The notes beneath the pieces were generated by a model. The model made no database searches. It was not told the origin of the DNA and saw nothing but the letters and a program-made list of their open reading frames with translations. Below are positions 1,287 to 34,865 of a DNA stretch of 47,225 bases, in pieces. Numbering within the stretch: position 1 is the first letter of the stretch; every line of letters begins with the position of its first letter. Position numbers and translations under genes: made by a program. Origin of the DNA: a virus; the IMG/VR virus record IMGVR_UViG_3300037264_000723, positions 1 to 47,225 of that record; one strand, 5' to 3'.

Positions 1287-1483
1287 TGGCGTGCTTCCCG
1301 CGCTAAATGTGCGCAATACCTTTCGTACCAAAAGAGGTCTAAGACAGGAGCTGTGAGCCATACCGATGCGGCAAGCGACGAAATTCCCGTTCTCACTTGT
1401 ATTTCGCTGGCTTCGCGAGACAGCCTGTCAAAAGTGTCGGCCCTTGCCTGACGCATGGTCTCGAAAAATTCGCCGTCGCTCAT
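1283..1483 (-). CDS. Hypothetical protein, 66 aa
   Basis: Starts one base inside the portal stop (TAATG) and ends in an ATGA overlap with the next gene, so it is translationally coupled on both sides. The N-terminal half is a charged helix; a more hydrophobic stretch (AASVWLTAPVLDLFWY) follows. No recognised family. Confidence 0.65.
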   Translation of the reverse strand: MSDGEFFETMRQARADTFDRLSREASEIQVRTGISSLAASVWLTAPVLDLFWYERYCAHLAREARQ

Positions 1484-3450
1484 TACGGCTGCGCTCCATT
1501 GGGCTGGATTGGCGGCCCGCCGAGTTGCGGCGGCGGTTGCGGCATCGGGCCTGCTGGTTTACCGCCTTCGCCTTGCGGCTTCCGCATGTCGGCCATGGCC
1601 TTGAAGAATATCTTGTACGCTTCGAGTTGCTGTCCCGGCTCTTCCGCTTCGGCGCGCGCAATCGATTCGATAACGCGCGCCTTGTTGAGGTCGATCTTGG
1701 AATACGTTTCCTCGATTTCCGCTGTGAGTCTCGCAAGCGCAGCCAATGCTTCGGGCGGGGCCGCCTTCTGCTGCTCGAACAATTCCTCGATGTTCTCGAC
1801 GCCGACCGATTCCAACTGCCTGCGGGTAATCGCCATGGTGTTCATGCCCGGCTGGCCCTTGTAGCGTTCGAGATATTCGGCCCGCGCAATGCGCTGCATA
1901 TCCGCGACCATCGACGGATCGGAGACCGGCACGATGTCCATGGGATCGCCCTGGTAGTCCTCAGCCGAAAGCTGGGGCGCGTCCTGGAACATCTCATATT
2001 CTTCCTGGTCGAAGTATTTGCGGTTGATCGCGTAGAGCTTTTGGTACTCCTCCCCGAGCCCGCGATGGATGCGCTTGAAAATCGAGGTGAAGACCTTCAG
2101 CCCCTGCTCGATCAGCGCAAGTGCAGTCCCCGGCTGCATCGTCTGGGCACTGACTTCTCCGGTGAGAACGTCCTTGACGCTTGCGACTTCGCGCGCCGCG
2201 TCGATCAGCAATCCGAGCAACTGAAACAGCACGGGCGACGGGCCGGGAAATGTAAGCGGCACGACGTTGTCGCGAGCAGTAGAACCGGAAACATCGACCT
2301 CCTTGTATTCGCCAGGTGAAAACCGGAGTGTCCCGCCTTTGAGACGAAGCCCAGAGCCGATGAAGCCGCCGCCCGTATTTGCAAGCGTGCCAGCATCGAG
2401 AAGCTGATTGATGACCGTATTGATGGATTCGTTCAGTGGGCTGAGCAACCAGCCGAACCCGATATCGTAGAATCCTCCATCGGGATTGGGCACGAACGGT
2501 ATCTTGGTGAAATACTCAACCGGGTCGATGCCGACGATCTTTCCGGGAAACATGCGGATCGTGTCCGCATCCCAATTCGCTCTTACGCGGCAGACTTGCT
2601 GCGTCTGTTTGTGGACGGTGATGATGTACGGCTCTGTGTATCCGTCGCCGTCCAAATCCCACCGGCGATGCTGTTCGAGGAACTTATGCGGCGCGTCTTC
2701 ATCATCCCCCCCGCCTTCGGCTATGCCGTAATCGAACGAGCGGAACGTGCCGGATAAAATCCGCTCGGCGATTTCGTGCGGGTACAGTTCAAAACAGTGC
2801 GTTACTCTTGGGGCGGTCGCCAGCGACTTCGCGGAATGATTGACGATAAGGTCGAACGCCGAAACGTAATCGGAGCGCGGCCTTCCGAGATCCGGAGAGA
2901 AGAACGTCTTCTTGAACCCGCAGCCGATGATCGGGATGGCGTGCATCATCCGGTCTACGTCGGATTCCCATTCCTTCATGCGCTTCAGGAGCTGCCAGCT
3001 CATGTGCGCGCAAATGCGCTCGCCGCGTGCTTTCTTGGTTCCTCCGGGGTCTGCCCCCATGATTTCGCAGCGCACGACCTTCGCGCCCATGATGATCGCC
3101 GGATAGGCGCGGGCAGCGAATTGTATCGCCGCGCTCGTCATGATCGGGAAGCGCACATTGGCCGCGCCCGGCCACGGGAAGGTCTTGGGCTTCGCATTTT
3201 GCAGCGCTAAGTCCATGCCGGCGCGGACGCGCTTTTCCCACTCAGCTCTGGAACTCTCGTCGATGCGGGTCTCGCGGCAAACCTTCTGGCCCATGGCCGT
3301 GAGCTTGTCGGGAGTGAGTTGGAAGATATCGTTGTCGATGGCGAGGTTGGGGACTTTGGCGAGCTGCTGAAGGCGGGTCAGCGGGTCGGCTTGCGGCTGC
3401 TGTTGCTGCGATTCATCCGTGTAGTCGTCGGCAACGTCGGTGTAGGCCAT
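1483..3450 (-). CDS. Portal protein
   Basis: 655 aa, within the usual range for podovirus portals. It follows the large terminase and precedes the scaffold. The N-terminal quarter has the pattern seen in P22-like and related portals: a long helix with EWEKRVRAGMDLALQ, then FPWPGAANVRFPIMTSAA, a motif I associate with this family. The middle holds alternating strands, and residues about 400-480 hold helical wing/stem segments (SVKDVLTGE). The C-terminus is proline- and glutamine-rich. The dodecameric ring forms the DNA entry vertex and docks the terminase. The start overlaps the stop of the 44-aa ORF (TGATG). Confidence 0.9.
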   Translation of the reverse strand: MAYTDVADDYTDESQQQQPQADPLTRLQQLAKVPNLAIDNDIFQLTPDKLTAMGQKVCRETRIDESSRAEWEKRVRAGMDLALQNAKPKTFPWPGAANVRFPIMTSAAIQFAARAYPAIIMGAKVVRCEIMGADPGGTKKARGERICAHMSWQLLKRMKEWESDVDRMMHAIPIIGCGFKKTFFSPDLGRPRSDYVSAFDLIVNHSAKSLATAPRVTHCFELYPHEIAERILSGTFRSFDYGIAEGGGDDEDAPHKFLEQHRRWDLDGDGYTEPYIITVHKQTQQVCRVRANWDADTIRMFPGKIVGIDPVEYFTKIPFVPNPDGGFYDIGFGWLLSPLNESINTVINQLLDAGTLANTGGGFIGSGLRLKGGTLRFSPGEYKEVDVSGSTARDNVVPLTFPGPSPVLFQLLGLLIDAAREVASVKDVLTGEVSAQTMQPGTALALIEQGLKVFTSIFKRIHRGLGEEYQKLYAINRKYFDQEEYEMFQDAPQLSAEDYQGDPMDIVPVSDPSMVADMQRIARAEYLERYKGQPGMNTMAITRRQLESVGVENIEELFEQQKAAPPEALAALARLTAEIEETYSKIDLNKARVIESIARAEAEEPGQQLEAYKIFFKAMADMRKPQGEGGKPAGPMPQPPPQLGGPPIQPNGAQP

Positions 3451-3584
3451 CAGCCCATTTCCTTCAGGTTCCAGGGCAATAGCAGGTTTAGATAGTTCCG
3501 ATATTCCCGGTTCGCGATGCCCTGGCCGAATTTCGTCAGGGCCTTCGCCGCGTTGCGTTTCTTGCGTTTGCTTTTTTTCGCCAT
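3450..3584 (-). CDS. 44-aa ORF carrying a fragment of the ejection-protein motif
   Basis: Begins 2 nt after the terminase stop and ends in a TGATG overlap with portal, which supports translation. The N-terminus is strongly basic (MAKKSKRKKR). Residues 15-33 (ALTKFGQGIANREYRNYLN) closely match residues in the gp7-like ejection protein encoded at 33747-34865. The similarity extends to the DNA: 3485-3546 matches 34079-34140 at about 54 of 62 positions, with a 24-nt perfect core. It looks like a duplicated piece of the ejection gene domesticated as a micro-ORF. Function unknown. Confidence 0.55.
   Translation of the reverse strand: MAKKSKRKKRNAAKALTKFGQGIANREYRNYLNLLLPWNLKEMG
3485..3546. repeat. 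Dispersed repeat, copy 1 (partner 34079-34140)
   Basis: Aligned by eye without gaps to 34079-34140, with 8 mismatches in 62 nt. The core 3509-3532 is identical to 34103-34126. Both copies lie on the same strand in coding sequence and in a corresponding reading frame, so this is a duplicated coding segment rather than a regulatory repeat. Confidence 0.85.
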
Positions 3585-3585
3585 C

Positions 3586-4983
3586 CTAGTACCCAGTTGT
3601 GGCGTTCCTTTCGCTTTCGGCGGCACGCTTCGCGTGCTCGTGGTCTTCCGACTGATCGACCCGGCCCGGAACGGTCATGGTGTCGAACAGATCGGCCAGG
3701 AGCCACACCAGCGCATCGACGCGGTCGAGGAGTTCCCCGGTAACGCGCGTTGCCGCGCGCTCGGGCGTGAAGCCCACCATCTGGTCTTCGAGGTCTGGGA
3801 ACGTGCCAACGTGGCTCACTCGGTTCTGCTCGTACAGCGCGCTTGCCGGTTCGGCGCGAACATACTTGCCTCTTGTGGCTCTTACTAGTCCCACCGGCAC
3901 ATCGGTTGCAACCGCCTTGATGCAGCGCTCGACCATCTCGCCGCCTTGGTTGGCTTCAGCGACGATACGATCAGCCTCGAACTTCCGGTACATGGCGACG
4001 GCCCTACGCGCCCATTGATCGGGAGACCCGCGCATGGAAGCATCTTCGAGAACGAACCCGTGCTGTGCCGCGCTTACACCCCCAACGATGATCCCCGTCT
4101 CGGCCGATGAATCGCCGGAGGTGATTGCCGGGTCTACAGCTACCGTCAATCTTACCAAGTCTGGCACGTCGGCCATGCGGACGACGCGGTTCTCATCCAG
4201 GTTCTTGCGGCTCCACAGGGCGCCTGGGATGTCCTCCAGAATCTCGGCCTCGATCTCCTGCCGGCCAAGGCGGGTCCCAAAGTAGCGGTCGATGACGTTG
4301 TGCTTGAAGGACGGAGCCAGCCAGTTCAGATTTTCATGGCTGGAAAAGCGCGTCACCACCACGCGCGGGTCCTTCACGAGCTTGAAAATCAGGGGGATCG
4401 GTCTCGGCGTCGAAGTCGCGCACCACTGGGGATGTTTCCCCAGCCGGAGCCCGAGCAGCATCTGGTCATAGACTTCGGCCGCATAGCGCATCTTGAACAG
4501 TTCGTCGATCCAGACCCGGTCATACTGAGGCCCGCGCAACTGCTCGGGCTCTCTCGCGTCAAAGAGGGTCGCGACCGCCCCGTGCTTGTCCCAGGTCAGA
4601 CGGCGCTTCGATGGTTCATACCGGGGCTTATCCCAAGGCGGGCTGATCGCCAGTATCCCGGACTCACCCTCGACCAGCACATCCCGCCCGTCCGCGCTGG
4701 TCTCGGCAATCAGGCCTATCCGCTTGCACCCATGCTTTTCCACCCCATCGCGTATCCATTCCGCCCCGGCCCTGGTCTTCCCTCCCCCTCGACCACCGAG
4801 CATCAACCACCCGTCCCAATCCCCTTCCGGGGCCATCTGCTTCGGCCGCGCCCATTTGGGCCAGTCGAAGTTCAGATACATCAGCTCCTCAGGGGTGAGC
4901 TTCTTGGTCAGCTCCCGCAGGGTCTTGGGAGACTGGCGCTCGGTCCAGCTTCGAGGGTCTTTGGGCTCAGGAGCGGCGACCAT
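3586..4983 (-). CDS. terL: Terminase large subunit (TerL)
   Basis: 465 aa. The ATPase domain shows a Walker A of the form GGRGGGKTRAGAEW near residues 63-76 and a Walker B VWIDE near 157, followed by an ATSTPRP motor-coupling motif. The C-terminal RNase-H-like nuclease begins at VDPAITSGDSSAETG, with the first catalytic aspartate in VDP and a further acidic site in RVDALVW near the end. The enzyme cuts concatemers and pumps DNA into the procapsid. It starts in a TAATG overlap with the upstream gene. The small subunit is not adjacent: it lies about 1.5 kb upstream, separated by several small ORFs. Confidence 0.95.
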   Translation of the reverse strand: MVAAPEPKDPRSWTERQSPKTLRELTKKLTPEELMYLNFDWPKWARPKQMAPEGDWDGWLMLGGRGGGKTRAGAEWIRDGVEKHGCKRIGLIAETSADGRDVLVEGESGILAISPPWDKPRYEPSKRRLTWDKHGAVATLFDAREPEQLRGPQYDRVWIDELFKMRYAAEVYDQMLLGLRLGKHPQWCATSTPRPIPLIFKLVKDPRVVVTRFSSHENLNWLAPSFKHNVIDRYFGTRLGRQEIEAEILEDIPGALWSRKNLDENRVVRMADVPDLVRLTVAVDPAITSGDSSAETGIIVGGVSAAQHGFVLEDASMRGSPDQWARRAVAMYRKFEADRIVAEANQGGEMVERCIKAVATDVPVGLVRATRGKYVRAEPASALYEQNRVSHVGTFPDLEDQMVGFTPERAATRVTGELLDRVDALVWLLADLFDTMTVPGRVDQSEDHEHAKRAAESERNATTGY

Positions 4984-5518: not shown

Positions 5519-5691
5519 ATCTCGACCTCGACCTCGGCGTCCCGAACGGTGCCATCCTTCTCGAAGGGTGCCACACCGTTTGCGTGGCACTCTTCGGCAA
5601 AACCGCCCGTTTTCCCGAAGGGTGCCACCGATCTTGTGTGGCACCCTTCGGTGGCACTCTTCGGCAGCTCCCATGACCAGCCGCTTCCCAT
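5515..5691 (-). CDS. 58-aa ORF encoded across the hairpin repeats
   Basis: Supported by coupling: its stop overlaps the next start as ATGA, and an AAGAG site precedes its ATG. Two internal peptide repeats are encoded by the DNA repeats, EGCHTRSVAPFGK and EECHANGVAPFEK, each with a Cys-His pair. The C-terminus is acidic (DAEVEVEI). The protein could be a small metal- or nucleic-acid-binding peptide, or merely a frame tolerated across a structured element. I do not recognise it. Confidence 0.5.
   Translation of the reverse strand: MGSGWSWELPKSATEGCHTRSVAPFGKTGGFAEECHANGVAPFEKDGTVRDAEVEVEI
5543..5664. repeat. Cluster of inverted and direct repeats forming hairpins
   Basis: The 13-mer CGAAGGGTGCCAC occurs at 5562-5574 and 5616-5628, and its complement, exact or with one change, at 5584-5596, 5638-5650 and 5652-5664 (approximate ends). 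A degenerate copy lies near 5543-5555. The pair at 5614-5651 makes a perfect 13-bp stem with an 11-nt loop. The first pair makes a similar stem with one G-T. Several reading frames on both strands stay open through it. It could be an RNA-processing or attenuation element, or a mobile REP-like palindrome. Confidence 0.8.
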
Positions 5692-9753: not shown

Positions 9754-10391
9754 GATGGCAGCTCTGTGCCAAGGCTTGGCTGGGTCCGAAACTCTGGGTA
9801 CAGTTCGCGCGTCCGCTCGACCATGATCTTGCGTCGTGCGGCTTCCCAATCCCAGCCGTGGTCGCGGACCAATTCCTGCGTCATCAGGAAGCGCTGGTGC
9901 AGCTCGTCATCGTTCAGTCGGGACGGCGTAATCTGCTTCAGGGTCCAAGCGTTTAGCTCGGCCCGCGTGGCTTCATCGCGCGCATAGTCCGAAAGCGGAG
10001 CCTTAAAAAATCCTTCGCGCGGGGTTTTGCTAACGCATTTGGCGCACCGGCAGCCGCCCCCGAATATCTCCCGGTGCTTGTTTGGCGGATCGGCATAGGG
10101 ATTTTTCATCAGCTCAAGCAGTTGGCCGGAACTCGGGAAGTAGGCCTTGGTCCCCGTCCGCCATCGTTTGCAGGCATGGGCGATTTCAGGTTCGCTTCGG
10201 CCCGCTAAGTCTTCGCACATCTGGCGCAGCAGGACTTTGCGCTGTCCCTCGGTCATCTCCTTCGCGAAGAACCACGTGCCCAGAGCCGTTAGGTGGGCCG
10301 TGATTTCTTGCGGCGTCGCGCGCGTCGTATTCTGCAATGAGTTCGGCGGCGACCCTGGCGGTTTGTTCGAGGGGGGATTCTCGTCTTCCAT
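9750..10391 (-). CDS. Replication-associated hypothetical protein, 213 aa
   Basis: Proline/asparagine-rich start, then a helical domain (EITAHLTALGTWFFAKEMTEGQRKVLLRQM and SEPEIAHACKRWRTG, each shown in part), then a CRCAKC cysteine cluster. The arrangement resembles proteins next to DUF1376 replication proteins that may load helicase, but I cannot assign that. With the start at 10391 it overlaps the upstream gene by 206 nt; an in-frame ATG in AKEMTEG would reduce this but remove the helical start. Confidence 0.6.
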   Translation of the reverse strand: MEDENPPSNKPPGSPPNSLQNTTRATPQEITAHLTALGTWFFAKEMTEGQRKVLLRQMCEDLAGRSEPEIAHACKRWRTGTKAYFPSSGQLLELMKNPYADPPNKHREIFGGGCRCAKCVSKTPREGFFKAPLSDYARDEATRAELNAWTLKQITPSRLNDDELHQRFLMTQELVRDHGWDWEAARRKIMVERTRELYPEFRTQPSLGTELPS

Positions 10392-11064
10392 GTCCGTTAG
10401 CCTTTTGTGAGCGGTTGAATTTCAGAGCGTTGCGATACCAAGTCCGCCATGCGGCGTCCCAGTTCGCCATGAGCGAGCCGTGCTTCAGATGGTGGTCGCG
10501 GAATTGCGCAATTTCATCATCGAGACGGTCGGCAATATCGAAACAGGCGTGGACATTCCAGAACTGGATGGCGTCGTTTTGGAGTTCTACGGTTGGAAAG
10601 TCGGGGGGGAGAGCTGTTCGCTTGGACGCGCGCTTTTCGGCGCGCGGACTTCTAGTTACTGGTTTTTGTATTTCTTCTTGTGAAGGTGAAGGTGAAGGTG
10701 TATGGCGATCGGATGCGATCGCCATTGCGGTCGCATTGCGTTTGCCCCAGCGGGCGGATGCGCCAGCTACGCCAGCACGTGACCGTTTCTGAAGGTTTTC
10801 AACAGCTTGGTCTAACTCAAGCTCTACCCGCTTGTGACGCCAGCCAGCCTCGAAAAAAGCTCTAAGCTGAGGTGTGATTTTACGCCACAGCTCTACCCTC
10901 ATCCGCACTATTCGCGCGAGTGCGTGGTCATCGGTCGGGAGCGAGCCTGTCTGCCAGTAGTGCATGATGAGGAGGAGGTAGGCCCCGTGTTCCAACGTGC
11001 TGAGGTGGCCCGTATCGGCGAGGTAGTCGGCGACATAGAGGGGCATCCATGGGGGGGCGCTCAA
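10186..11064 (-). CDS. DUF1376 (YdaU-like) replication protein
   Basis: 292 aa from the TTG at 11064, which has an AAGGAG site 9 nt upstream; a longer frame to 11130 lacks one. The domain near the N-terminus reads PWMPLYVADYLADTGHLSTLEHGAYLLLIMHYW, cited here as the start of a DUF1376 domain, a winged-helix type found in phage replication initiators. The C-terminus has a second helical part with WDAAWRTWYRNAL, typical of replisome organisers. It probably acts with the downstream 213-aa protein at the phage origin. Confidence 0.75.
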   Translation of the reverse strand: MSAPPWMPLYVADYLADTGHLSTLEHGAYLLLIMHYWQTGSLPTDDHALARIVRMRVELWRKITPQLRAFFEAGWRHKRVELELDQAVENLQKRSRAGVAGASARWGKRNATAMAIASDRHTPSPSPSQEEIQKPVTRSPRAEKRASKRTALPPDFPTVELQNDAIQFWNVHACFDIADRLDDEIAQFRDHHLKHGSLMANWDAAWRTWYRNALKFNRSQKANGHGRRESPLEQTARVAAELIAEYDARDAARNHGPPNGSGHVVLREGDDRGTAQSPAAPDVRRLSGPKRT

Positions 11065-11171
11065 TAGGTGAATCTCCTTCCGAAAGGTGCCGGCCGGGCC
11101 AGGTTCGGAAGGACGGCTGAACCCGGCCAAGTCACCCCAACGCGCCCGGGAGCTACCCGAGCGGGGAAAGA

Positions 11172-12206
11172 TTACGCCTGCGGCGGCAAAAGAGCAAGCT
11201 GTGGCTGGTCCTTTGGTGTGTGACCTTTAGCGTTTACGTCGTAATGCTCGAAGGGAATGAACATATACGCCCTGCGAACTGTCCACCGCTGGAATTCGGC
11301 CAAGGTCCGGCTTTTTATGTCGGCGTTGTATCCACCCAACTCAAGACGGCGGGCGCGATCTCCATACACCATGGGATATGGTTTGATCCCACGCGACACC
11401 ATGCGATTGAAGCGGTGGAAGATGCGCGCCCATGTTTCGTGCTTGTCATAGCCGACGAGCATGTAGACGAGAAGTGCAGTGGGCGGAATACCAGCATCTT
11501 GTAGCAAATCTACGCCAGCAAAAAACCTCTGCTCGTCGCCAAGGTTATCCCACGCAGTATACAATCGCCGTGTCTTGAATTGGTCATCGCACAGCCGAAT
11601 TGATGCGAGTGCCGTTGCGGCTTCAGGCGTAACCATGCGAATGTTGATGCCTTGGTTGAAACAAATCTTGAAATCACCATCTCTGAATTCTGCGATTCTA
11701 GCTTCCCATTGTTCGCGCGGTTGACCAAAAAAATCGTTATCAAGCAAGTGGAGATGCTTCGGGTACGGATCGCCGCGCCAGATGTCGCCAACCGAATTGA
11801 CTGAACGCGGAGCACCCTCTTTTTTCGGCACGACGCAGAATCCGCACTTGAGCCGACACCCACGCTGGGTGAACCCAATGCTCGCCTCGAAATCTGGATA
11901 AATGGTGTAGTCGTAGCGTTCCGGCCCGGAAAGGTTGAGCTGCTGTTCCACGGTGATCGGCTCGTCACGATCCCAAGTCCCACCCACAATCGCTTGGGGG
12001 AAGTTCGCCTTGAATCGGGCTACACGCGGCCCGCTGTATGAAAAGATCGCCGAGCCGTAGACAGAGTCATAATCCGGCTCAAGCATGTCCGCTTCGACAT
12101 GCTTTGAGAATATGACATCGCCGCCGCGCTCCCGGATTGCTTGGGCGATCCGCATAAGCGCGAGATTAGGAAGCTTACCGTCAATGTGAGTGAGTCTGAC
12201 GATCAT
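11172..12206 (-). CDS. Radical SAM protein with B12-binding-like N-terminus
   Basis: 344 aa. CxxxCxxC is present as CRLKCGFC at residues 117-124, which binds the 4Fe-4S cluster that cleaves S-adenosylmethionine. The N-terminal region (LTHIDGKLPNLALMRIAQAI and YGSAIFSYS) has the shape of a cobalamin-binding-like domain without an obvious DxHxxG. Several phages carry a similar protein of unknown function. Its place beside a DNA methyltransferase and helicase suggests nucleic-acid or nucleotide modification; that is inference. Confidence 0.85.
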   Translation of the reverse strand: MIVRLTHIDGKLPNLALMRIAQAIRERGGDVIFSKHVEADMLEPDYDSVYGSAIFSYSGPRVARFKANFPQAIVGGTWDRDEPITVEQQLNLSGPERYDYTIYPDFEASIGFTQRGCRLKCGFCVVPKKEGAPRSVNSVGDIWRGDPYPKHLHLLDNDFFGQPREQWEARIAEFRDGDFKICFNQGINIRMVTPEAATALASIRLCDDQFKTRRLYTAWDNLGDEQRFFAGVDLLQDAGIPPTALLVYMLVGYDKHETWARIFHRFNRMVSRGIKPYPMVYGDRARRLELGGYNADIKSRTLAEFQRWTVRRAYMFIPFEHYDVNAKGHTPKDQPQLALLPPQA

Positions 12207-12247
12207 CTCTCGTCACCACTGCGCGACCGTCGAGCGGGGAAAGTGTA

Positions 12248-13135
12248 TCACGCTACGTCTTTGGCGAATAGGTCATCCTGAGCGTCTTGGGCGGCTAAAT
12301 AGCGCCCGGCCTGCTTCCAGTACGCCTCTTTCAATTCGACGCCCAGGAACCTTCTCTGCAGCTTGAGCGAGACCACGCCCTCGGAACCAATGCCGCTGAA
12401 CGGCGATAGCACCGTGTCCCCGATGTTGCTCCACATTATGAGCGCGCGCTCGATCACGTCGAGCTGCAGGGGACACAGATGGCGCTCGTCGTTTACTTGG
12501 CGGGCGACAGCCACGTTCAGCACATTCGATTGCTGCACGGTCATCCAGACAGGCGAGGCCCATTCTTGCCACTGATCGAGCGGGAATTCTGCCGGCGTGT
12601 GCGATATCGGGTCCGCGTTCTCGCCCGGCTTCACGAAGGTCAGGAGGTAATCTGGCATCCCGCCACGCGATTTCACGCTGTCTTTCTGAAGCTGCTTGTA
12701 GAGCAAGCCGACATGCTTCGTGCGGGTCATTTCGACCACGGGGCATTTCCAGATCGTTCGCCGCGAGTGGAATATCCAGCCTTCTGCATCATGGGCGCGG
12801 ATGATATCGCCTGAAAAATCCTTGATGCCGACCGCGCCGTCTTTCCACTTGGTCATCGGCAGGTCAGAGCAGTGTACGGCGGTTAAGCGACCCGGCTTGG
12901 TCAGTCTGAACTTTTCCCGAACCAGGAATTGATAATGCTCGGCAAATTCTTCGTCCGTTGAGTTTCCCATGTCGGCGGCAGATTCCGAATAGACAAACAG
13001 GCTCCCGAACGGTGGCGAGTAGACCGAGAAATCAATGCATGCGCTCGGCATCTGGCGCAGCACATCAACGCAGTCGCCATGATAGAGCGTGTAATTTTTG
13101 CCGTGCGCTTCGTTCAGGCAGCGGATTTTAGCCAC
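12248..13135 (-). CDS. Beta-class DNA methyltransferase (N4-C or N6-A)
   Basis: 295 aa from a GTG with a GGAGAG site. The catalytic motif SPPF is at residues 40-43 and the SAM-binding motif FSGIGSEG near residues 246-253. Motif IV before motif I is the beta-class order used also by CcrM. SPP motifs are most common in N4-cytosine enzymes, so the target base is uncertain. No endonuclease gene is adjacent, so it is an orphan enzyme. It overlaps the helicase gene by 22 nt. Confidence 0.9.
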   Translation of the reverse strand: MAKIRCLNEAHGKNYTLYHGDCVDVLRQMPSACIDFSVYSPPFGSLFVYSESAADMGNSTDEEFAEHYQFLVREKFRLTKPGRLTAVHCSDLPMTKWKDGAVGIKDFSGDIIRAHDAEGWIFHSRRTIWKCPVVEMTRTKHVGLLYKQLQKDSVKSRGGMPDYLLTFVKPGENADPISHTPAEFPLDQWQEWASPVWMTVQQSNVLNVAVARQVNDERHLCPLQLDVIERALIMWSNIGDTVLSPFSGIGSEGVVSLKLQRRFLGVELKEAYWKQAGRYLAAQDAQDDLFAKDVA

Positions 13136-14499
13136 GTCGGAACTCTCCCTGTGTGCGTCGGATTGTATGGCGTTTTCACTGCGGCGTGCTGGTCTCGAGC
13201 GCGCACCATGGCGTCCCGAAAGGCTTGCTTCATCGTCGCGTGGTCATCGGCCTTGCGGTCGATGACGCGGCCAATCTCAGTCTCGCCTTCAGCCACGATG
13301 ATATCCACAGTGACTTGCCGCTTCTGCCCGTAGCGCCAGCACCGTCGCACGGCCTGATACCAAGTCTCGTATGAATAGGACCGCCCAACGAAGGCCATGC
13401 GATTGCAGAATGACCAATCGAGCCCGAACCCGCACATGGACGGCTTGGCGATCAGGTCCGTAAATTCCCCGTTCTCAAATGCGGCGAGACGTTCCTCCTT
13501 CATGTCGATGGTCATGGAGCCGCGAACCTCAACCGCCTTCGGTATCGCCGATTTCACGGCGTCAGCCTCGTAGTCGGTATCCACCCAGAGAATGATCGGG
13601 CCTTTGTTCTCGCTTGCGCACGCTGCCGCTACTTCAGCCCGCGCTGCGCTCGTTTGCCGCTTCACGTCATGGATATTCGTGGCCGACATGTTGACTTCAG
13701 AGAATAGGCCGTCGTTCATGCCTTTGATGCGTGTCTCGCGCGCCCGGTGCCGGCGGATGGTAAACGGCGAAAGCACAAATCCGTCGTCTTTATCGCCAAG
13801 GTCTGAAGGCTTTTCCGCCATGCGCGACCATGACGCCATCCAATCCCAGAAGTCGGATTCCGCGTGGCCCTTCAAGCGCCACTCTTGCGAGGCCGTCGAT
13901 GCGTCGTTAATAAACCAGCGGGACAGCATCTCGTTCGCCGCCATGATTTCCAGAAACTCGGCATAGTTCCCGAGTTCCATGTGGTCATTTGGAGCGGGCG
14001 TGGCCGTCGCCGCGAGTTTGAACCGGCATCCTCGGAACGCTTCGATCAATGCTCGCGTCGTCTTGCCGGTGAACGATTTTAGGATGCTGGCTTCGTCGAG
14101 CGATACCGACCCGAACGCTTCTGGCGATAGATTATGGAGCCTATCGTAATTGCAGATGTTGATGCCTTCGCGCGCTTCCGTTTGTTCGCGGATGACGTGC
14201 GCCTCGTATCCCCAACGCTCCGCACGGCGTCGTGTCTGTCGCGCGACCGCAAGCGGTGTTAGGATAAGCGCCATGCCGTTTGTTGCTTCGAGTGCGTGTT
14301 GCGACCATTCAAGCTGGCACTCGGTTTTGCCGAGGCCGGTATCGAGGAATAATCCGCCGCATCCGGCATGGAGATTGTGCGCCACGCTATGAGCCTGAAA
14401 CGGGTACAGGTGCTCGCGTAGGGCGGGGATGGTTTTCAATCCGCGTGCCGGCGCGCGCACGGCCTTCCGCGCGAGGAATTCAGCGTAAGGGTCGCTCAC
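13114..14499 (-). CDS. SNF2/DEAD-like helicase
   Basis: 461 aa from a GTG in a GTGA overlap. Walker A is DTGLGKT at residues 53-59, the Walker B box is DEAS at 135-138, motif III is TATPAPND, and the C-terminal helicase half includes ILWVDTDYEAD, a PSMCGFGLDW segment and YETWYQAVRRCWRYGQ, the last an arginine-finger region. Such SNF2-type ATPases often accompany phage methyltransferases and act in replication or DNA remodelling. Confidence 0.9.
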   Translation of the reverse strand: MSDPYAEFLARKAVRAPARGLKTIPALREHLYPFQAHSVAHNLHAGCGGLFLDTGLGKTECQLEWSQHALEATNGMALILTPLAVARQTRRRAERWGYEAHVIREQTEAREGINICNYDRLHNLSPEAFGSVSLDEASILKSFTGKTTRALIEAFRGCRFKLAATATPAPNDHMELGNYAEFLEIMAANEMLSRWFINDASTASQEWRLKGHAESDFWDWMASWSRMAEKPSDLGDKDDGFVLSPFTIRRHRARETRIKGMNDGLFSEVNMSATNIHDVKRQTSAARAEVAAACASENKGPIILWVDTDYEADAVKSAIPKAVEVRGSMTIDMKEERLAAFENGEFTDLIAKPSMCGFGLDWSFCNRMAFVGRSYSYETWYQAVRRCWRYGQKRQVTVDIIVAEGETEIGRVIDRKADDHATMKQAFRDAMVRARDQHAAVKTPYNPTHTGRVPTWLKSAA

Positions 14500-18144: not shown

Positions 18145-18419
18145 GCGAGGTTGATATTCCGTTCACGCAATATCTTCGGCCCAACGGGCGCAAGGTAGGC
18201 GTCACAATCGCCCGGCCAGTCGAAATTGCAACGCTGGCCCAAAAATTCATAGCGACTGGCGGATGGTTTGAATGCGAACATCTGCAAACGGGGCACGTGA
18301 GCCTAACGGCCTGCATGATTGTCGATGGCGAGCCGCAAGATGTGTTGTGCGAGCTAGTCGAAAACGGCCCCGATGTGCCGCCAGCCGTTGATCGGCTCGT
18401 ACGAGCCACCCGCCGTTGA
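18141..18419 (+). CDS. Small conserved phage protein, 92 aa
   Basis: Begins at a GTG in a GTGA overlap. DIPFTQYLRPNGRK, then ARPVEIATLAQKFIATGGWFEC, is a pattern seen in other phage small proteins of unknown role (quoted in parts). The 3' end is altered by a 28-bp tandem duplication: the stop codon lies in the second copy, because 28 is not a multiple of three. Confidence 0.65.
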   Translation: MSEVDIPFTQYLRPNGRKVGVTIARPVEIATLAQKFIATGGWFECEHLQTGHVSLTACMIVDGEPQDVLCELVENGPDVPPAVDRLVRATRR

Positions 18420-18440
18420 TCGGCTCGTACGAGCCACCCG
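18385..18440. repeat. Two tandem 28-bp repeats, each with a 14-bp palindrome
   Basis: 18385-18412 and 18413-18440 are identical. Each contains the perfect palindrome GGCTCGTACGAGCC (18394-18407 and 18422-18435). The first copy is coding, the second contains the stop. Could be a pair of protein-binding sites or a recent slippage duplication. Confidence 0.9.
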
Positions 18441-18490
18441 CGACACTTTGCCGCATTCCGGGGAATGAGCGGAGGGGGTAGGGTGAGTAC

Positions 18491-29808: not shown

Positions 29809-32424
29809 TTATTGGGTCTCCTGCTCCGGCTCAGTGGCCACGATGCCTGCGTTGACAAGAAAGCCGTGGAGGCGGCCTTCGATAAGGGCGGCCTCGGCGG
29901 CGGTCTTCGGGCGCTTCAGCAAATCCGCCATAAGTTTGGGCTCACGCACGGCTTCTATAAGCACGTCGGTTGTGCGCGTCATTAACGCTTTCATCATTTC
30001 TTGAGCGCGCCGGGAGCCTGCCGTCGTCGGGACAAGACCGCCGCCGCCGCCGAAAAGCCGACCGATCCAGCCGCCTGCCTTTGCGCCAACGATGCGCGTC
30101 ATCGTGTCGAGCATTTTGTCGGGAACATCGACCAATTCGGGAACGGCACGAGGATCCCCCTTCGCCGCCTCCAGCCGCGCGGCGCGCAATACCAGTTGCC
30201 GTAAGCGAGCGGCAATCTCCGGCGTTGCCACGCCAGACCGCTCCATTAGGTCGAGCACATTGCGCTTACCGCTTATCAACTGATCCTTGAGGGTGGTAAA
30301 AGAAATTTCGCCATCGCGCGTCGAGCGGCCAATGACATCGCGCAAAGTCGCCGCACGTAATCCCTCGGTCGCTTCGCGTCCGCTCTGCCGCGCCATTCTC
30401 GCCATGCCGAGATAGTCGCGAGTGGGATTGCCGCCGCCCAATATGCGACCCACCGCTGCTGCGGGGTCCTCCACATTGAGTATCTTCCCCAGCGCGGTCT
30501 CGACGCTTGTACGTCCGGCCGCCACGCTTTCTCCGACTACCCCGGCGCGTGCTTGGGAAACCGATGCGCGCTGAAGTTCAGAACGCACGCCTGGAAAGGC
30601 GCGCAGCAGTTCCTCATTCTCGGACATGAATTTTTGCAAGCGGGCCGGCGCTATGGCTCCCGTCTCTGGGTCGGCGAGGCGTGAGACTTGCGCTCGCAGA
30701 AACTCCTCTTGGGAACTTCGCATTGCGGGGGCGGTAGTGCCCGCACGCGATGGCGCAAACCCAGCAGCTCCCTGCAACTCTCCAAACCGCAAAGCGCCAC
30801 CCGTCCCGCCAGCACCAAAGGCGCGTTCCAGCATAATCTCCGGCGGGATGCGCTCGCCGCCGGTCGGGGCGTCCGCCAGTGCTCGTCCTGCGAAAGTGCG
30901 GGTAAACGCATCATGTTTGGCGCGGCTGAAAGCCCTTGCGGCCTCGGCTTCAGGCAGATCAAGAGACTCCAAGTCGCGAAGCGCCCCGTCAGCGATAGCA
31001 CTCATACGGCTATTGGTGCCCCAATCGCCTTTGGATCGAGCCTCCCGCGCCAATTCCAGCGCGCGGCTTCTAAGCGTCAAAAACTCCCCAGTGGTCGGCT
31101 TACTGTTGCGCTGAGCCAAGTCAGCCACATAACCGGCAATCGGCTCTGACAGTTTTTCATTGGGGAGGAGTTGCCCCCGAGCACTCTGAACGGCAGCGTC
31201 AAAATTGCTTGTTGCTTGGAGCGTGCGATCACGCGGCACTGCTGCCCATAGTTCTCGTTCGGTTGCCGTTGCATCGCTAAGCGCGTCCTCAAGTGCTTGA
31301 TTAGCACGTTGGCTCGCCTCGGCTTGCGCCGCCCTTCCGCCCGTACCAATGGCCGATCTTGCGGTTCTCGCCTCGCCCTGAGCCTGCTGCAAGCGACGAT
31401 TGAGCAAATCCGTCAGGTAGCGTTGACGTGTAGCGGCAGCGACCCTCAATGCTCCGGGATCGCCAGTGCGCGAGAAGGCATCAATGGCCTCGCGCTGCGC
31501 CGTAAGAATTGTTTTCGTCTGCTCATCAATCGCAAAGCCGACTTCAGGGCGCTCAGCCACAACTTTAGCTTCAAGGTTTTGAAGAGCTTGGCTTTCCGCC
31601 GCTCTCGCCGAGCTAAGCGGCCCGCTGGCGTCAGCCCCTTCAAGGGCCTTGATGATTGCCTGCTCGTCCTCGCCACTCTCCGCGATGACCTTCCGGATGG
31701 TCTCGGCAGCTCGTCCCTCGGCTTGGCTGCGCGTGATAGCGGGGAGCGCTTTGCTATCGCGACCGAGCATCCGACCGACGCCTCGATAGAGACGGCCCGG
31801 TATACTGAGCGGCGACACAAATCCGCCAGCGATTTCCGCCCCAACACGGGCCGGCACATTGCCGGGAGCGAAGATTTCAGCGCCCACCCCGCCTTGTGCC
31901 GCACCGGCCGAGGCCGCCGCTTCGGCGGCTAAAAAGGCTTTGGGAGACCGCTTCGCTAGGGCCTGGGCTCCCTTGAGAAATTTGGGGACCTGTGTCGCGG
32001 TGCGCAGTCCCTGCACCGCCACACCTCCGGGAATCATGGAGCCCACAACCGTCTCAACGCCAACCGCAAGCGGTCTGTGCGTGCGCGGCAATTCTTCTAG
32101 ATCACCGTAGGTTAGGCCCAGCTCGGCAGCTTTATCCGTGAAGCCTACATCCTTGACTTCCTGACCCGTCAGTTTCCCAACCCCGTGGCGTACAACGTCC
32201 GTCGCCAACTTGATTGGATTTATCATGTTGATGAAATCCAGCGTGCCTGTAACTCCGCGCACCGCAGCCTTTCCCGCCGAACTGGCGAGGGATGGCGTCT
32301 CATCTCTTTTGGTTTTCAGGATTGCCGCAATTTGTCTTGCGTCGTTAGCCGCGTCTTCATCGCCGCCATCGGCGGCAGCATCGGCGCGTCTTAGGGCGTC
32401 GAAAAGTTGCGCCCGCGAAGCCAT
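29809..32424 (-). CDS. Large DNA-ejection (internal virion) protein
   Basis: 871 aa from the ATG overlapping the previous stop (TAATG). Alanine- and arginine-rich long helices, a hydrophobic segment near residues 130-150, and a C-terminal region with QLVLRAARLEAAKGD. Size, composition and position after two other ejection-type genes match P22 gp16/gp20-like proteins that enter the host envelope ahead of DNA. No catalytic motif recognised. Confidence 0.7.
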   Translation of the reverse strand: MASRAQLFDALRRADAAADGGDEDAANDARQIAAILKTKRDETPSLASSAGKAAVRGVTGTLDFINMINPIKLATDVVRHGVGKLTGQEVKDVGFTDKAAELGLTYGDLEELPRTHRPLAVGVETVVGSMIPGGVAVQGLRTATQVPKFLKGAQALAKRSPKAFLAAEAAASAGAAQGGVGAEIFAPGNVPARVGAEIAGGFVSPLSIPGRLYRGVGRMLGRDSKALPAITRSQAEGRAAETIRKVIAESGEDEQAIIKALEGADASGPLSSARAAESQALQNLEAKVVAERPEVGFAIDEQTKTILTAQREAIDAFSRTGDPGALRVAAATRQRYLTDLLNRRLQQAQGEARTARSAIGTGGRAAQAEASQRANQALEDALSDATATERELWAAVPRDRTLQATSNFDAAVQSARGQLLPNEKLSEPIAGYVADLAQRNSKPTTGEFLTLRSRALELAREARSKGDWGTNSRMSAIADGALRDLESLDLPEAEAARAFSRAKHDAFTRTFAGRALADAPTGGERIPPEIMLERAFGAGGTGGALRFGELQGAAGFAPSRAGTTAPAMRSSQEEFLRAQVSRLADPETGAIAPARLQKFMSENEELLRAFPGVRSELQRASVSQARAGVVGESVAAGRTSVETALGKILNVEDPAAAVGRILGGGNPTRDYLGMARMARQSGREATEGLRAATLRDVIGRSTRDGEISFTTLKDQLISGKRNVLDLMERSGVATPEIAARLRQLVLRAARLEAAKGDPRAVPELVDVPDKMLDTMTRIVGAKAGGWIGRLFGGGGGLVPTTAGSRRAQEMMKALMTRTTDVLIEAVREPKLMADLLKRPKTAAEAALIEGRLHGFLVNAGIVATEPEQETQ

Positions 32425-33740
32425 TACTTGCCCCACTTGCTCATAAGCGCGTCTTCTTCGGACGTGTCTGCCTGAGCAGCCCCCGGAGCGCCGCCAGCCG
32501 CCTCAATAAATTTGGTGTATTCTCGCTCTAGTCCCTGCAAGCGCAATATGTGGCGCTGGCGGTTATCCGCTTGGACCTTTGTTTGGGGGCGGTAACTTTG
32601 GGCCTGTGCGATCTGCCGTTTGATGAAATTCTGTGTGCCGACGAACATATTCATCATTCCTTGTGGCCCGCGACCGCCGCCGCTGCTTGCCACAATCGAA
32701 TCCAATTCTCTTAGAAGATAATTGGAAGGATTGCCTCGCACATCTTGGGCGAGCGCCGTGCGTGTCTCAATGTTGAGCTGCCGCACTTGTTGGGCGGCTC
32801 GCTGCGCTGCCGGGTCGAATGGTTCAAGCCCCAAGAAGTCCTTGATAGCGTTTATCGGCGGCGCAACAGCTCCACCGTACCAACTAGTCGCAAGACGCGG
32901 GTCCTCGGGAGTTTCTCCTGGGCCTGTTACTCCTGGAGAAATTGGCTCTGCCTCACCACCATAATCGCTTGCGGCTGTAGAAACTTCCACCGCGCCTTCC
33001 CTGAGTGCAGCATCCAATGCCGGATCGCGCCTGCGGAAAGTTTGAAGTGTGCCGTCTCGTCGCCTCACGTTGACGAGTGCGTTATCGGAAGCGGCCGGCG
33101 TGGGGAATCTCGCCCGCGCGCGCTGCTGGGCCGTTTCAATCGCTCCGGCTCTTTCTGCGGCCTCCGCGGTCGTTCCTTCCCTGGCTTCATCTGCGCGCCG
33201 GATGTTTTCGGGGTCGGCTTGCTGCGCCGCCAGTTGCTCCGAGACGGACATGACCCGCGTGAGCATCCCATCAACCATTTGCTCGTTGTAGTCTTCGGGT
33301 ATCCCGGCAAAATCCGTATCGGGAAATTGCTTCCTGTATGCGGCGAGTTGCTGCTTGTAGGTAATCCCGCGCAATTCCGGTGGAACATTTTTCACTGTGG
33401 TCAGCGCCCGGATGACATAATCCGTTTGCGCTTTCACGCGCTCGAATTGGCTTTTGCGTGTCGTTTCCGCCGCTGAAAGATTCGCCTGTCTGCTGCCCTC
33501 AACCTTAATCGCCTTCTCTGGATCGATGCCAGCGAGCGCGTTGATTGCCTCGGGGTTTCCGCTCGCAATGCCGGGGCCATATTGCTGGAAGAACTGTTGA
33601 AGCTGGCGCTGGCGCTGCTGTGCCTGCTGGTCCGCTGCCGCTTTCGCCTGCGCCTGCTGGATGTTCATCTGCATCGTGAGAATCGACAGGCGGCGGGCCT
33701 TGTGCTCGCTCGGGGTCATTACGTCGAGGGCGCTGACCAT
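32424..33740 (-). CDS. DNA-ejection protein (gp20-like), 438 aa
   Basis: The N-terminal 70 residues are a glutamine-rich coiled coil (QAQAKAAADQQAQQRQRQLQ), then QFERVKAQTDYVIRALTTVK, and a proline-rich middle. Such features are typical of internal virion proteins. An in-frame ATG seven codons in is a possible alternative start. Confidence 0.65.
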   Translation of the reverse strand: MVSALDVMTPSEHKARRLSILTMQMNIQQAQAKAAADQQAQQRQRQLQQFFQQYGPGIASGNPEAINALAGIDPEKAIKVEGSRQANLSAAETTRKSQFERVKAQTDYVIRALTTVKNVPPELRGITYKQQLAAYRKQFPDTDFAGIPEDYNEQMVDGMLTRVMSVSEQLAAQQADPENIRRADEAREGTTAEAAERAGAIETAQQRARARFPTPAASDNALVNVRRRDGTLQTFRRRDPALDAALREGAVEVSTAASDYGGEAEPISPGVTGPGETPEDPRLATSWYGGAVAPPINAIKDFLGLEPFDPAAQRAAQQVRQLNIETRTALAQDVRGNPSNYLLRELDSIVASSGGGRGPQGMMNMFVGTQNFIKRQIAQAQSYRPQTKVQADNRQRHILRLQGLEREYTKFIEAAGGAPGAAQADTSEEDALMSKWGK

Positions 33741-33746
33741 CTGAAC

Positions 33747-34865
33747 CTACCACTGAAGTCGGAAAATGTTGCCGAGACCGCCCCCGCCACCATACGCGCC
33801 ACTTTCATCAATGGAGCCATAACCATAATTTGGAAATCCCTGCGGTCCCGGCGTCCAGCCACCGCTCGCGTCCGGTGTGGCGAAACCGCCACCGCCGCCG
33901 AAGAGCGGCGCGAGATTCCCAACAGCATCGCCCCAGATATTGCCCTGCGCTACGGCGTTCGCCGCCTGAGCGTTGCCTTGCGCACCGTAAAGGCCGCTCG
34001 CCGCATTGGCATAATTCTGTCCGAATTGTCCGGTTTGTGAGGCGGCGTTCTGGCCTTGGGTGGAAAGGTTCCCGAGCTGGTTGAGGTAGTTCCAAAATTC
34101 CTGGTTCGCGATGCCCTGGCCGAATTGGGTGAGGGCCTTCAGCCGCGAACCTGACCCGAGTAGGCCCTGCGTTCCGGCGCTGGCATTGACCGCCCTTGTT
34201 CCCTGATCAAAAGCAAACTGGTATCCGGGGGAGCCCTGGAACGTGGTACCTTGCGTCATTCCCGGTGTGCCGCCAGAGCCCGCAACGGCAGGGCTGCCAG
34301 CCCAACCGGCGACCGGCGACTGAACGAGCCCAAGATTGGTCTGGCCGCCACCGAGCGCCGCCCCTCCGGGGCCGTATCCCGCCTCCGCCCATGAGGCGTC
34401 GGAAACCGTTTGCCCCGCTTGCAATGCCGCCTGGATGTCGCCAATCGCAGACCGATTGTCTTCGCCGAAGACGCTCTTGAAAAACGTATTCACCGGAGAA
34501 TTCTTGTTCAATATCCCGGCTGGATTACGCGCGAAGCTGTTGACATCTCCGAGTGTGGAGCCGGACGAACCGCCACCTGAATAGCCCATCGCCGCCTGCA
34601 TCCCAGGCGTTGGCCCGCTTGGTTGCCCCGGAGCGCCGCCAGAACTTGCAATGGGCCGGGCCACCCCAAGCGCGTCCGACAACTGATAGAGCGCGTTCAT
34701 GCCAGTGAGCGTCCACGGGCTCAAATCAGAGCGGGTCTGACTGTAAATCTGCTGTTGCAGGGCGAGTCCCTGTTGCGCCGCATCCGTTTGCGCTTCAGTC
34801 GCCTTGTTTGCCGAATAAGCGCCGATTGCGGCTGATCCTACGACGGCGGCGGCGATCCAGGGCAT
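33747..34865 (-). CDS. DNA-transfer (ejection) protein, P22 gp7-like
   Basis: 372 aa. Starts with a short hydrophobic segment (IAAAVVGSAAIGAYSAN). The middle has GYQFAFDQGTRAVNASAGTQ, then LKALTQFGQGIANQEFWNYL, a motif shared by P22 gp7-like and related ejection proteins. The rest is glycine-rich. The motif also occurs in the 44-aa ORF at 3450-3584. Confidence 0.75.
   Translation of the reverse strand: MPWIAAAVVGSAAIGAYSANKATEAQTDAAQQGLALQQQIYSQTRSDLSPWTLTGMNALYQLSDALGVARPIASSGGAPGQPSGPTPGMQAAMGYSGGGSSGSTLGDVNSFARNPAGILNKNSPVNTFFKSVFGEDNRSAIGDIQAALQAGQTVSDASWAEAGYGPGGAALGGGQTNLGLVQSPVAGWAGSPAVAGSGGTPGMTQGTTFQGSPGYQFAFDQGTRAVNASAGTQGLLGSGSRLKALTQFGQGIANQEFWNYLNQLGNLSTQGQNAASQTGQFGQNYANAASGLYGAQGNAQAANAVAQGNIWGDAVGNLAPLFGGGGGFATPDASGGWTPGPQGFPNYGYGSIDESGAYGGGGGLGNIFRLQW
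34079..34140. repeat. Dispersed repeat, copy 2 (partner 3485-3546)
   Basis: Coding part of the ejection-protein gene, with a 24-nt perfect core at 34103-34126. Likely the parent copy, because here the motif is embedded in a full-length protein. Confidence 0.85.

What the first reader, a model, noticed from the sequence alone, without database searches (positions are those of the whole stretch)
3450..3584. Piece of the ejection gene duplicated 30 kb away as a micro-ORF between TerL and portal
DNA 3485-3546 and 34079-34140 agree at about 54 of 62 positions with a 24-nt identical core; both encode the GQGIAN motif in a matching frame. The micro-ORF is translationally coupled to both neighbours and has an added basic N-terminus. 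It could compete with or regulate assembly of the ejection protein at the portal, where both act.
Basis: seen in the sequence. Interest (0 to 1): 0.75.

Follow-up and report, generated by a model that had tools for sequence, protein, structure and literature searches.

The report
Phage ejection-gene fragment duplicated beside portal
In one uncultured phage, a short piece of a gene for a protein injected with the DNA has been copied into the gap between two assembly genes, where it forms a tiny 44-codon gene that looks translated; none of the several hundred related sequences examined has it, so it is probably a recent one-off whose job, if it has one, is unknown.

Summary
DNA 3485-3546 and 34079-34140 match at 54 of 62 positions with a 24-nt identical core, the strongest self-match in the window (E 5e-15). 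The copy lies in frame in a 44-codon ORF, 3450-3584(-), set tightly between TerL and portal. Its donor, 33747-34865(-), is a P22-gp7-like DNA-ejection protein (PHROG 598); the copied 22 residues are the family's conserved core, at the start of its long C-terminal helix.

The insert looks lineage-specific. The nearest relative (TerL 63%, portal 59%) has only 3 nt between TerL and portal. No motif copy was found in about 195 other TerL loci. The 66 other records found with an ejection gene have no micro-ORF copy.

The ORF looks coding: even its 21 non-copied codons have phage-like usage (P 0.008). But it has 5 amino-acid against 5 silent changes versus the donor, more than ejection orthologues usually show. 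It also carries the portal's likely ribosome-binding site.

Best reading: a recent partial gene duplication captured as a small basic helical peptide gene in a variable cargo slot. A role in ejection-protein assembly is possible (T7 gp6.7 is a precedent) but untested. A neutral passenger or translational relay remains a strong rival.

The parts
3450..3584 (-). micro-ORF, 44 aa, MAKKSKRKKRNAAKALTKFGQGIANREYRNYLNLLLPWNLKEMG (12 K/R, 2 E)
   Evidence: gene-like codon usage; AlphaFold2 single helix residues 4-43, mean pLDDT 80
3481..3552 (-). duplicated segment: in-frame copy of the conserved ejection-protein core
   Evidence: blastn to 34075-34147, 86% over 73 bp, E 4.6e-15; family core model 48 bits, E 6e-14
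3553..3584 (-). basic N-terminal stretch of the micro-ORF, no match elsewhere in the window
3460..3465 (-). GAAGGA, likely ribosome-binding site of the portal gene, inside the micro-ORF (9-nt spacer)
   Evidence: anti-SD pairing -5.5 kcal/mol; L003 portal -3.1
3580..3585 (-). GATGGC, upstream copy of the 6-bp direct repeat flanking the 134-nt insert (holds the micro-ORF start)
3446..3451 (-). GATGGC, downstream copy (holds the portal start)
3586..4983 (-). terminase large subunit (TerL), upstream neighbour
   Evidence: PHROG 979 E 4e-31; Pfam Terminase_6N/6C
1483..3450 (-). portal protein, downstream neighbour
   Evidence: PHROG 1216 E 3e-13
33747..34865 (-). donor gene: P22-gp7-like DNA-ejection protein, 372 aa
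   Evidence: PHROG 598 E 6e-32; family alignment to P22 gp7, hhalign probability 90%, E 1.6e-6; PF25688 in 4 of 58 members
34075..34147 (-). donor segment of the duplication
33900..34154 (-). codons of the predicted long C-terminal helix (residues 238-322), whose start holds the duplicated core
   Evidence: AlphaFold2 on 58 sequences
32424..33740 (-). next gene of the ejection operon (gp20/gp15 position, by order only)
   Evidence: no family hit; order compared with P22
29809..32436 (-). third gene of the ejection operon (gp16 position, by order only)
   Evidence: no significant family hit; order compared with P22

Best explanation
A 134-nt stretch carrying a copy of the conserved core of the phage's own P22-gp7-like ejection gene was inserted at the portal start codon, between TerL and portal, in the recent ancestry of this phage. 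The insert took over the start site next to the TerL stop, so it is read as a 44-codon gene coupled to TerL, and it carries at its 3' end the ribosome-binding site now likely used by the portal. Most likely it makes a short, very basic, helical peptide that imitates the first part of the ejection protein's long helix. Shown by sequence: the duplication, its frame, its absence from the relatives examined, and gene-like codon usage. Inferred: translation, direction of copying (supported by the core being family-wide), and any binding to ejection protein, portal or DNA. I put about 0.85 on the duplication origin, 0.6 on real translation, and 0.2-0.25 on a selected role in ejection-protein assembly, for example as a bridge or brake like T7 gp6.7.
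For: Strongest self-match of the window. The micro-ORF is closer in DNA to its own ejection gene (54/62) than to any other family member (best 46/62). The copied residues are the family core, and the copy still scores 48 bits against the core model. The nearest relative L003 has TAG-CGA-ATG between TerL and portal and no insert. No micro-ORF motif in about 195 other TerL loci or in the phage collection; 66 other ejection-bearing records have no short-ORF copy. Codon usage is at the 79th percentile of gene windows and above all 243 out-of-frame windows; the 21 non-copied codons alone beat a synonymous null at P 0.008. Flanking GATGGC repeat and portal Shine-Dalgarno inside the insert. Helix predictions.
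Against: Only one record carries it, so conservation cannot be tested. Against the donor it has 5 amino-acid and 5 silent codon changes, where orthologue pairs of similar distance total 63 silent to 11 amino-acid (Fisher P 0.019, chosen pairs), so it is not held to the old role. Its own ribosome-binding site is weak. No expression, binding or structural data. The 6-bp flanking repeat is partly explained by ATG-GC being a common gene start.
Confidence: 0.55

Rival explanations
1. Neutral passenger: a chance partial duplication that happens to be open and harmless. Any peptide made has no function and the insert will be lost.
For: Single record; relaxed amino-acid changes. The chance of still being open after 10 random changes in the 22-codon core is about 0.6, so openness proves little. 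The TerL-portal gap is a variable slot in relatives.
Against: Codon usage of the non-copied ends is gene-like. The core keeps a family score that random change reaches only 3% of the time with 6 changes and 0.2% with 10, though 11% with 4. Start and stop fit tightly with both neighbours.
Confidence: 0.3
2. Translational relay: the selected feature is not the peptide but the reading frame and its internal Shine-Dalgarno, which couple portal synthesis to TerL and adjust portal dosage.
For: TerL stop, 1 nt, micro-ORF ATG; TGATG overlap with portal; GAAGGA inside the micro-ORF pairs better than the start signal in L003.
Against: Does not explain why an ejection-gene fragment with its family core was retained, nor the basic N-terminus; L003 does without it.
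Confidence: 0.15
3. The fragment came from another phage's ejection gene by horizontal transfer rather than from the phage's own gene.
For: 14% DNA divergence in the core; the micro-ORF has Tyr where the family prefers Tyr and this phage's gene has Phe.
Against: No other ejection gene found is as close (next best 46/62); the 24-mer is absent from other IMG/VR contigs.
Confidence: 0.15
4. The repeat is kept as a DNA element (packaging, recombination or regulatory site) and its coding is incidental.
For: 24-nt identical core.
Against: Both copies are in the same frame and encode a core conserved at the protein level across the family; the DNA 24-mer is found in no relative.
Confidence: 0.03
5. 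Assembly artefact.
For: Metagenomic contig with no end repeats.
Against: The two copies differ at 14% of positions, and TerL-portal order and frame on both sides agree with L003.
Confidence: 0.03

Closest known systems
P22 gp7 / PHROG 598 DNA-ejection proteins (Pfam PF25688)
   Same: The copied 22 residues are the conserved core of this family; the donor protein is a member by profile.
   Different: The micro-ORF has only the core (about 22 of 372 residues), a new basic N-terminus, and lies outside the ejection operon.
T7 gp6.7 and gp7.3, small ejected virion proteins
   Same: Small proteins encoded just upstream of the portal gene (gene order from my own knowledge); gp6.7 bridges portal barrel and the small ejection protein gp14, and the N-terminus of gp7.3 is mostly positive (PMC11784390).
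   Different: No sequence link was found; gp6.7 is not described there as a duplicate of gp14; virion presence of the micro-ORF product is unknown.
Lambda gpW
   Same: Small gene lying between TerL and portal (from my own knowledge).
   Different: No PHROG or Pfam hit links the micro-ORF to gpW.
Cargo genes (morons) in the TerL-portal gap
   Same: Relatives carry assorted unrelated small ORFs in the same gap, including an Acb2/Tad1-hairpin-like one.
   Different: Those are unrelated proteins; here the cargo is a fragment of a virion gene of the same phage.

Membership tests
P22 gp7-like ejection protein (PHROG 598) | Donor gene 33747-34865 matches the family profile | tested here: met
   E 6e-32; 57 of 58 aligned members match PHROG 598; hhalign to P22 gp7 E 1.6e-6
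P22 gp7-like ejection protein (PHROG 598) | Micro-ORF carries the conserved core | tested here: met
   48 bits, E 6e-14 against an 11-row core model that includes the micro-ORF itself; core alignment
P22 gp7-like ejection protein (PHROG 598) | Micro-ORF is a full-length member with both long helical regions and a place in the ejection operon | tested here: not met
   44 aa against 372; lies between TerL and portal; PHROG 598 not hit by the micro-ORF
T7 gp6.7-like small core protein | Present in the virion and bound to portal barrel and ejection protein | not testable with these tools
   needs virion proteomics or cryo-EM
T7 gp6.7-like small core protein | Sequence or profile similarity to gp6.7 | tested here: not met
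   no PHROG hit better than E 0.075 and no Pfam hit for the micro-ORF
Lambda gpW family | Profile match to gpW | tested here: not met
   no Pfam hit
Translated small gene | Gene-like codon usage beyond the copied part | tested here: met
   P 0.008 for 21 non-copied codons
Translated small gene | Conservation of the open frame in relatives | tested here: inconclusive
   no relative carries the insert

The most novel reading that the evidence does not exclude
A phage has evolved a 'decoy' or bridge peptide from a 22-residue piece of its own ejection protein, placed it under TerL-portal coupling, and uses it to time or limit docking of ejection proteins at the portal during head assembly.
Probability: 0.12. 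Interest if true: 0.7.

Novelty: new variant of a known kind. Interest (0 to 1): 0.32.

Why it matters
If real and translated, it is a clear snapshot of how a new small phage gene is born: part of a virion gene copied into a spare slot, fitted with the neighbour's start signal, and given a new N-terminus. It would also let one ask directly whether a piece of an ejection protein can dock at the portal by itself. If it is a passenger, it still documents that the TerL-portal gap accepts fragments of the phage's own genes.

Tried and rejected
Conserved small gene at this place: rejected, none in about 195 other TerL loci. Recurrent ejection-motif micro-ORFs elsewhere in phages: rejected in the 66 ejection-bearing records found; two of them hold an extra half-motif inside the same gene and one has a weak hit in another 452-aa ORF. 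DNA-level element: 24-mer absent elsewhere. DNA and protein searches of the phage collection gave nothing. The basic N-terminus and the tail have no source in the window beyond 13-nt chance matches. Fold search of the ejection model gave no PDB match; no PDB sequence match. Paper searches found no described case of an ejection-gene fragment between TerL and portal.

Full report
What was checked. The two stretches 3485-3546 and 34079-34140 agree at 54 of 62 positions without gaps, with a 24-nt identical run. blastn extends the match to 73 bp at 86% (E 4.6e-15), the strongest self-match in the window. Elsewhere in the window the same 62-mer matches no better than 32 of 62. The copy is read in the same frame in both places. 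The micro-ORF runs 3450-3584 on the minus strand. TerL (3586-4983) ends one base before it, and its stop overlaps the portal start by one base.

The donor. The gene 33747-34865 is a DNA-ejection protein of PHROG 598 (E 6e-32). A 58-member alignment of its family matches P22 gp7 by profile comparison (probability 90%, E 1.6e-6); four members hit Pfam P22_gp7 and one T7_gp14. It is followed by two larger genes, the order seen in P22 (7-20-16) and described for ejection operons (PMC8954989). The copied 22 residues are the family's conserved core. AlphaFold2 places them near the start of an 85-residue helix (residues 238-322) with high local confidence, although the whole model is only moderate (mean pLDDT 66).

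Map correction. The left contig end cuts a gene just downstream of the portal, scaffold-like by position only, and the right end cuts a major head protein. The record is linear without end repeats. If the genome is circular or permuted, donor and copy are about 16.5 kb apart (plus a short gap) in one leftward late operon, not 30 kb.

Relatives. The nearest relative, L003 (TerL 63%, portal 59%), reads TAG-CGA-ATG between TerL and portal, with no insert; its ejection gene is present. A second one sharing the portal family, L293 (TerL 47%, portal 41%), has about 730 nt there with unrelated small ORFs. A core HMM (88 sequences, micro-ORF and donor included) run on six-frame translations of about 195 other TerL loci found nothing; the window scored 41 bits and the next 7.8. 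Whole-record searches found the motif in 66 other records, always within an ORF of at least 190 residues; two records have a partial second hit inside the same gene and one has a weak hit (E 0.006) in a different 452-residue ORF. The copy is therefore unique to this record as far as I could search. The loci are biased to what pattern scans can find, and records very near the window may have been left out.

Origin. The micro-ORF DNA is closer to its own ejection gene than to any other (next best 46 of 62), so copying from the phage's own gene, or from a close relative's, is the simplest account. The 134-nt insert is flanked by GATGGC on both sides, which would regenerate the portal start. This is suggestive only, because ATG-GC is a common gene start.

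Is it a gene? Codon usage of the whole ORF exceeds all 243 out-of-frame open windows and sits at the 79th percentile of gene windows. The 21 codons that are not copied also beat a synonymous null (P 0.008). Against that, the core differs from the donor by 5 silent and 5 amino-acid codons, where ten chosen orthologue pairs of similar distance total 63 silent to 11 amino-acid (Fisher P 0.019; P 0.005 without one outlying pair). One orthologue pair, L208/L220, is also 5 to 5. A neutral simulation reaches the family score of the micro-ORF in 11% of cases with 4 changes, 3% with 6 and 0.2% with 10. The number of changes on this branch is not known, so constraint is hinted at, not shown.

How it may work. 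Its own start has a weak Shine-Dalgarno but lies next to the TerL stop; the portal's likely Shine-Dalgarno lies inside it. The product would be very basic (12 K/R, 2 E) and helical (single helix 4-43, mean pLDDT 80, no alignment). A peptide copying the start of the ejection protein's helix could pack against ejection-protein oligomers. T7 shows that a small protein can bridge portal barrel and the gp14 ejection protein (gp6.7), and that a small ejected protein can have a mostly positive N-terminus (gp7.3) (PMC11784390). This is analogy, not membership. A neutral passenger and a translational relay remain live rivals.

Verdict. Observation confirmed; interpretation partly supported. It is a lineage-specific partial gene duplication, probably coding, of unproved function.

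Noticed in passing
L293:5030-5263 (IMGVR_UViG_3300012943_000011): A 77-aa ORF in the TerL-portal gap of a relative weakly matches the Acb2/Tad1 hairpin domain (Pfam PF24729, E 3e-5, just under the curated cut-off), a possible anti-defence gene.
   Followed up: partly
L005-L063, TerL-portal junctions: In this TerL family the gap between TerL and portal ranges from overlap to over 1 kb and holds assorted unrelated small ORFs, so it behaves as a cargo slot.
   Followed up: partly
L218 and L234 records (G070, G077): Ejection genes with an extra half-copy of the same core motif inside the gene, suggesting this segment is prone to duplication.
   Followed up: no
5562-5650: Imperfect inverted repeat of about 90 bp (81%) upstream of TerL.
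   Followed up: no
18377-18441: Two direct copies of a 37-bp stretch offset by 28 bp (95%).
   Followed up: no
10186-14499: Helicase, DNA methyltransferase, radical-SAM protein (PHROG 9298) and primosomal-type protein genes next to one another; possible DNA modification, not examined.
   Followed up: no
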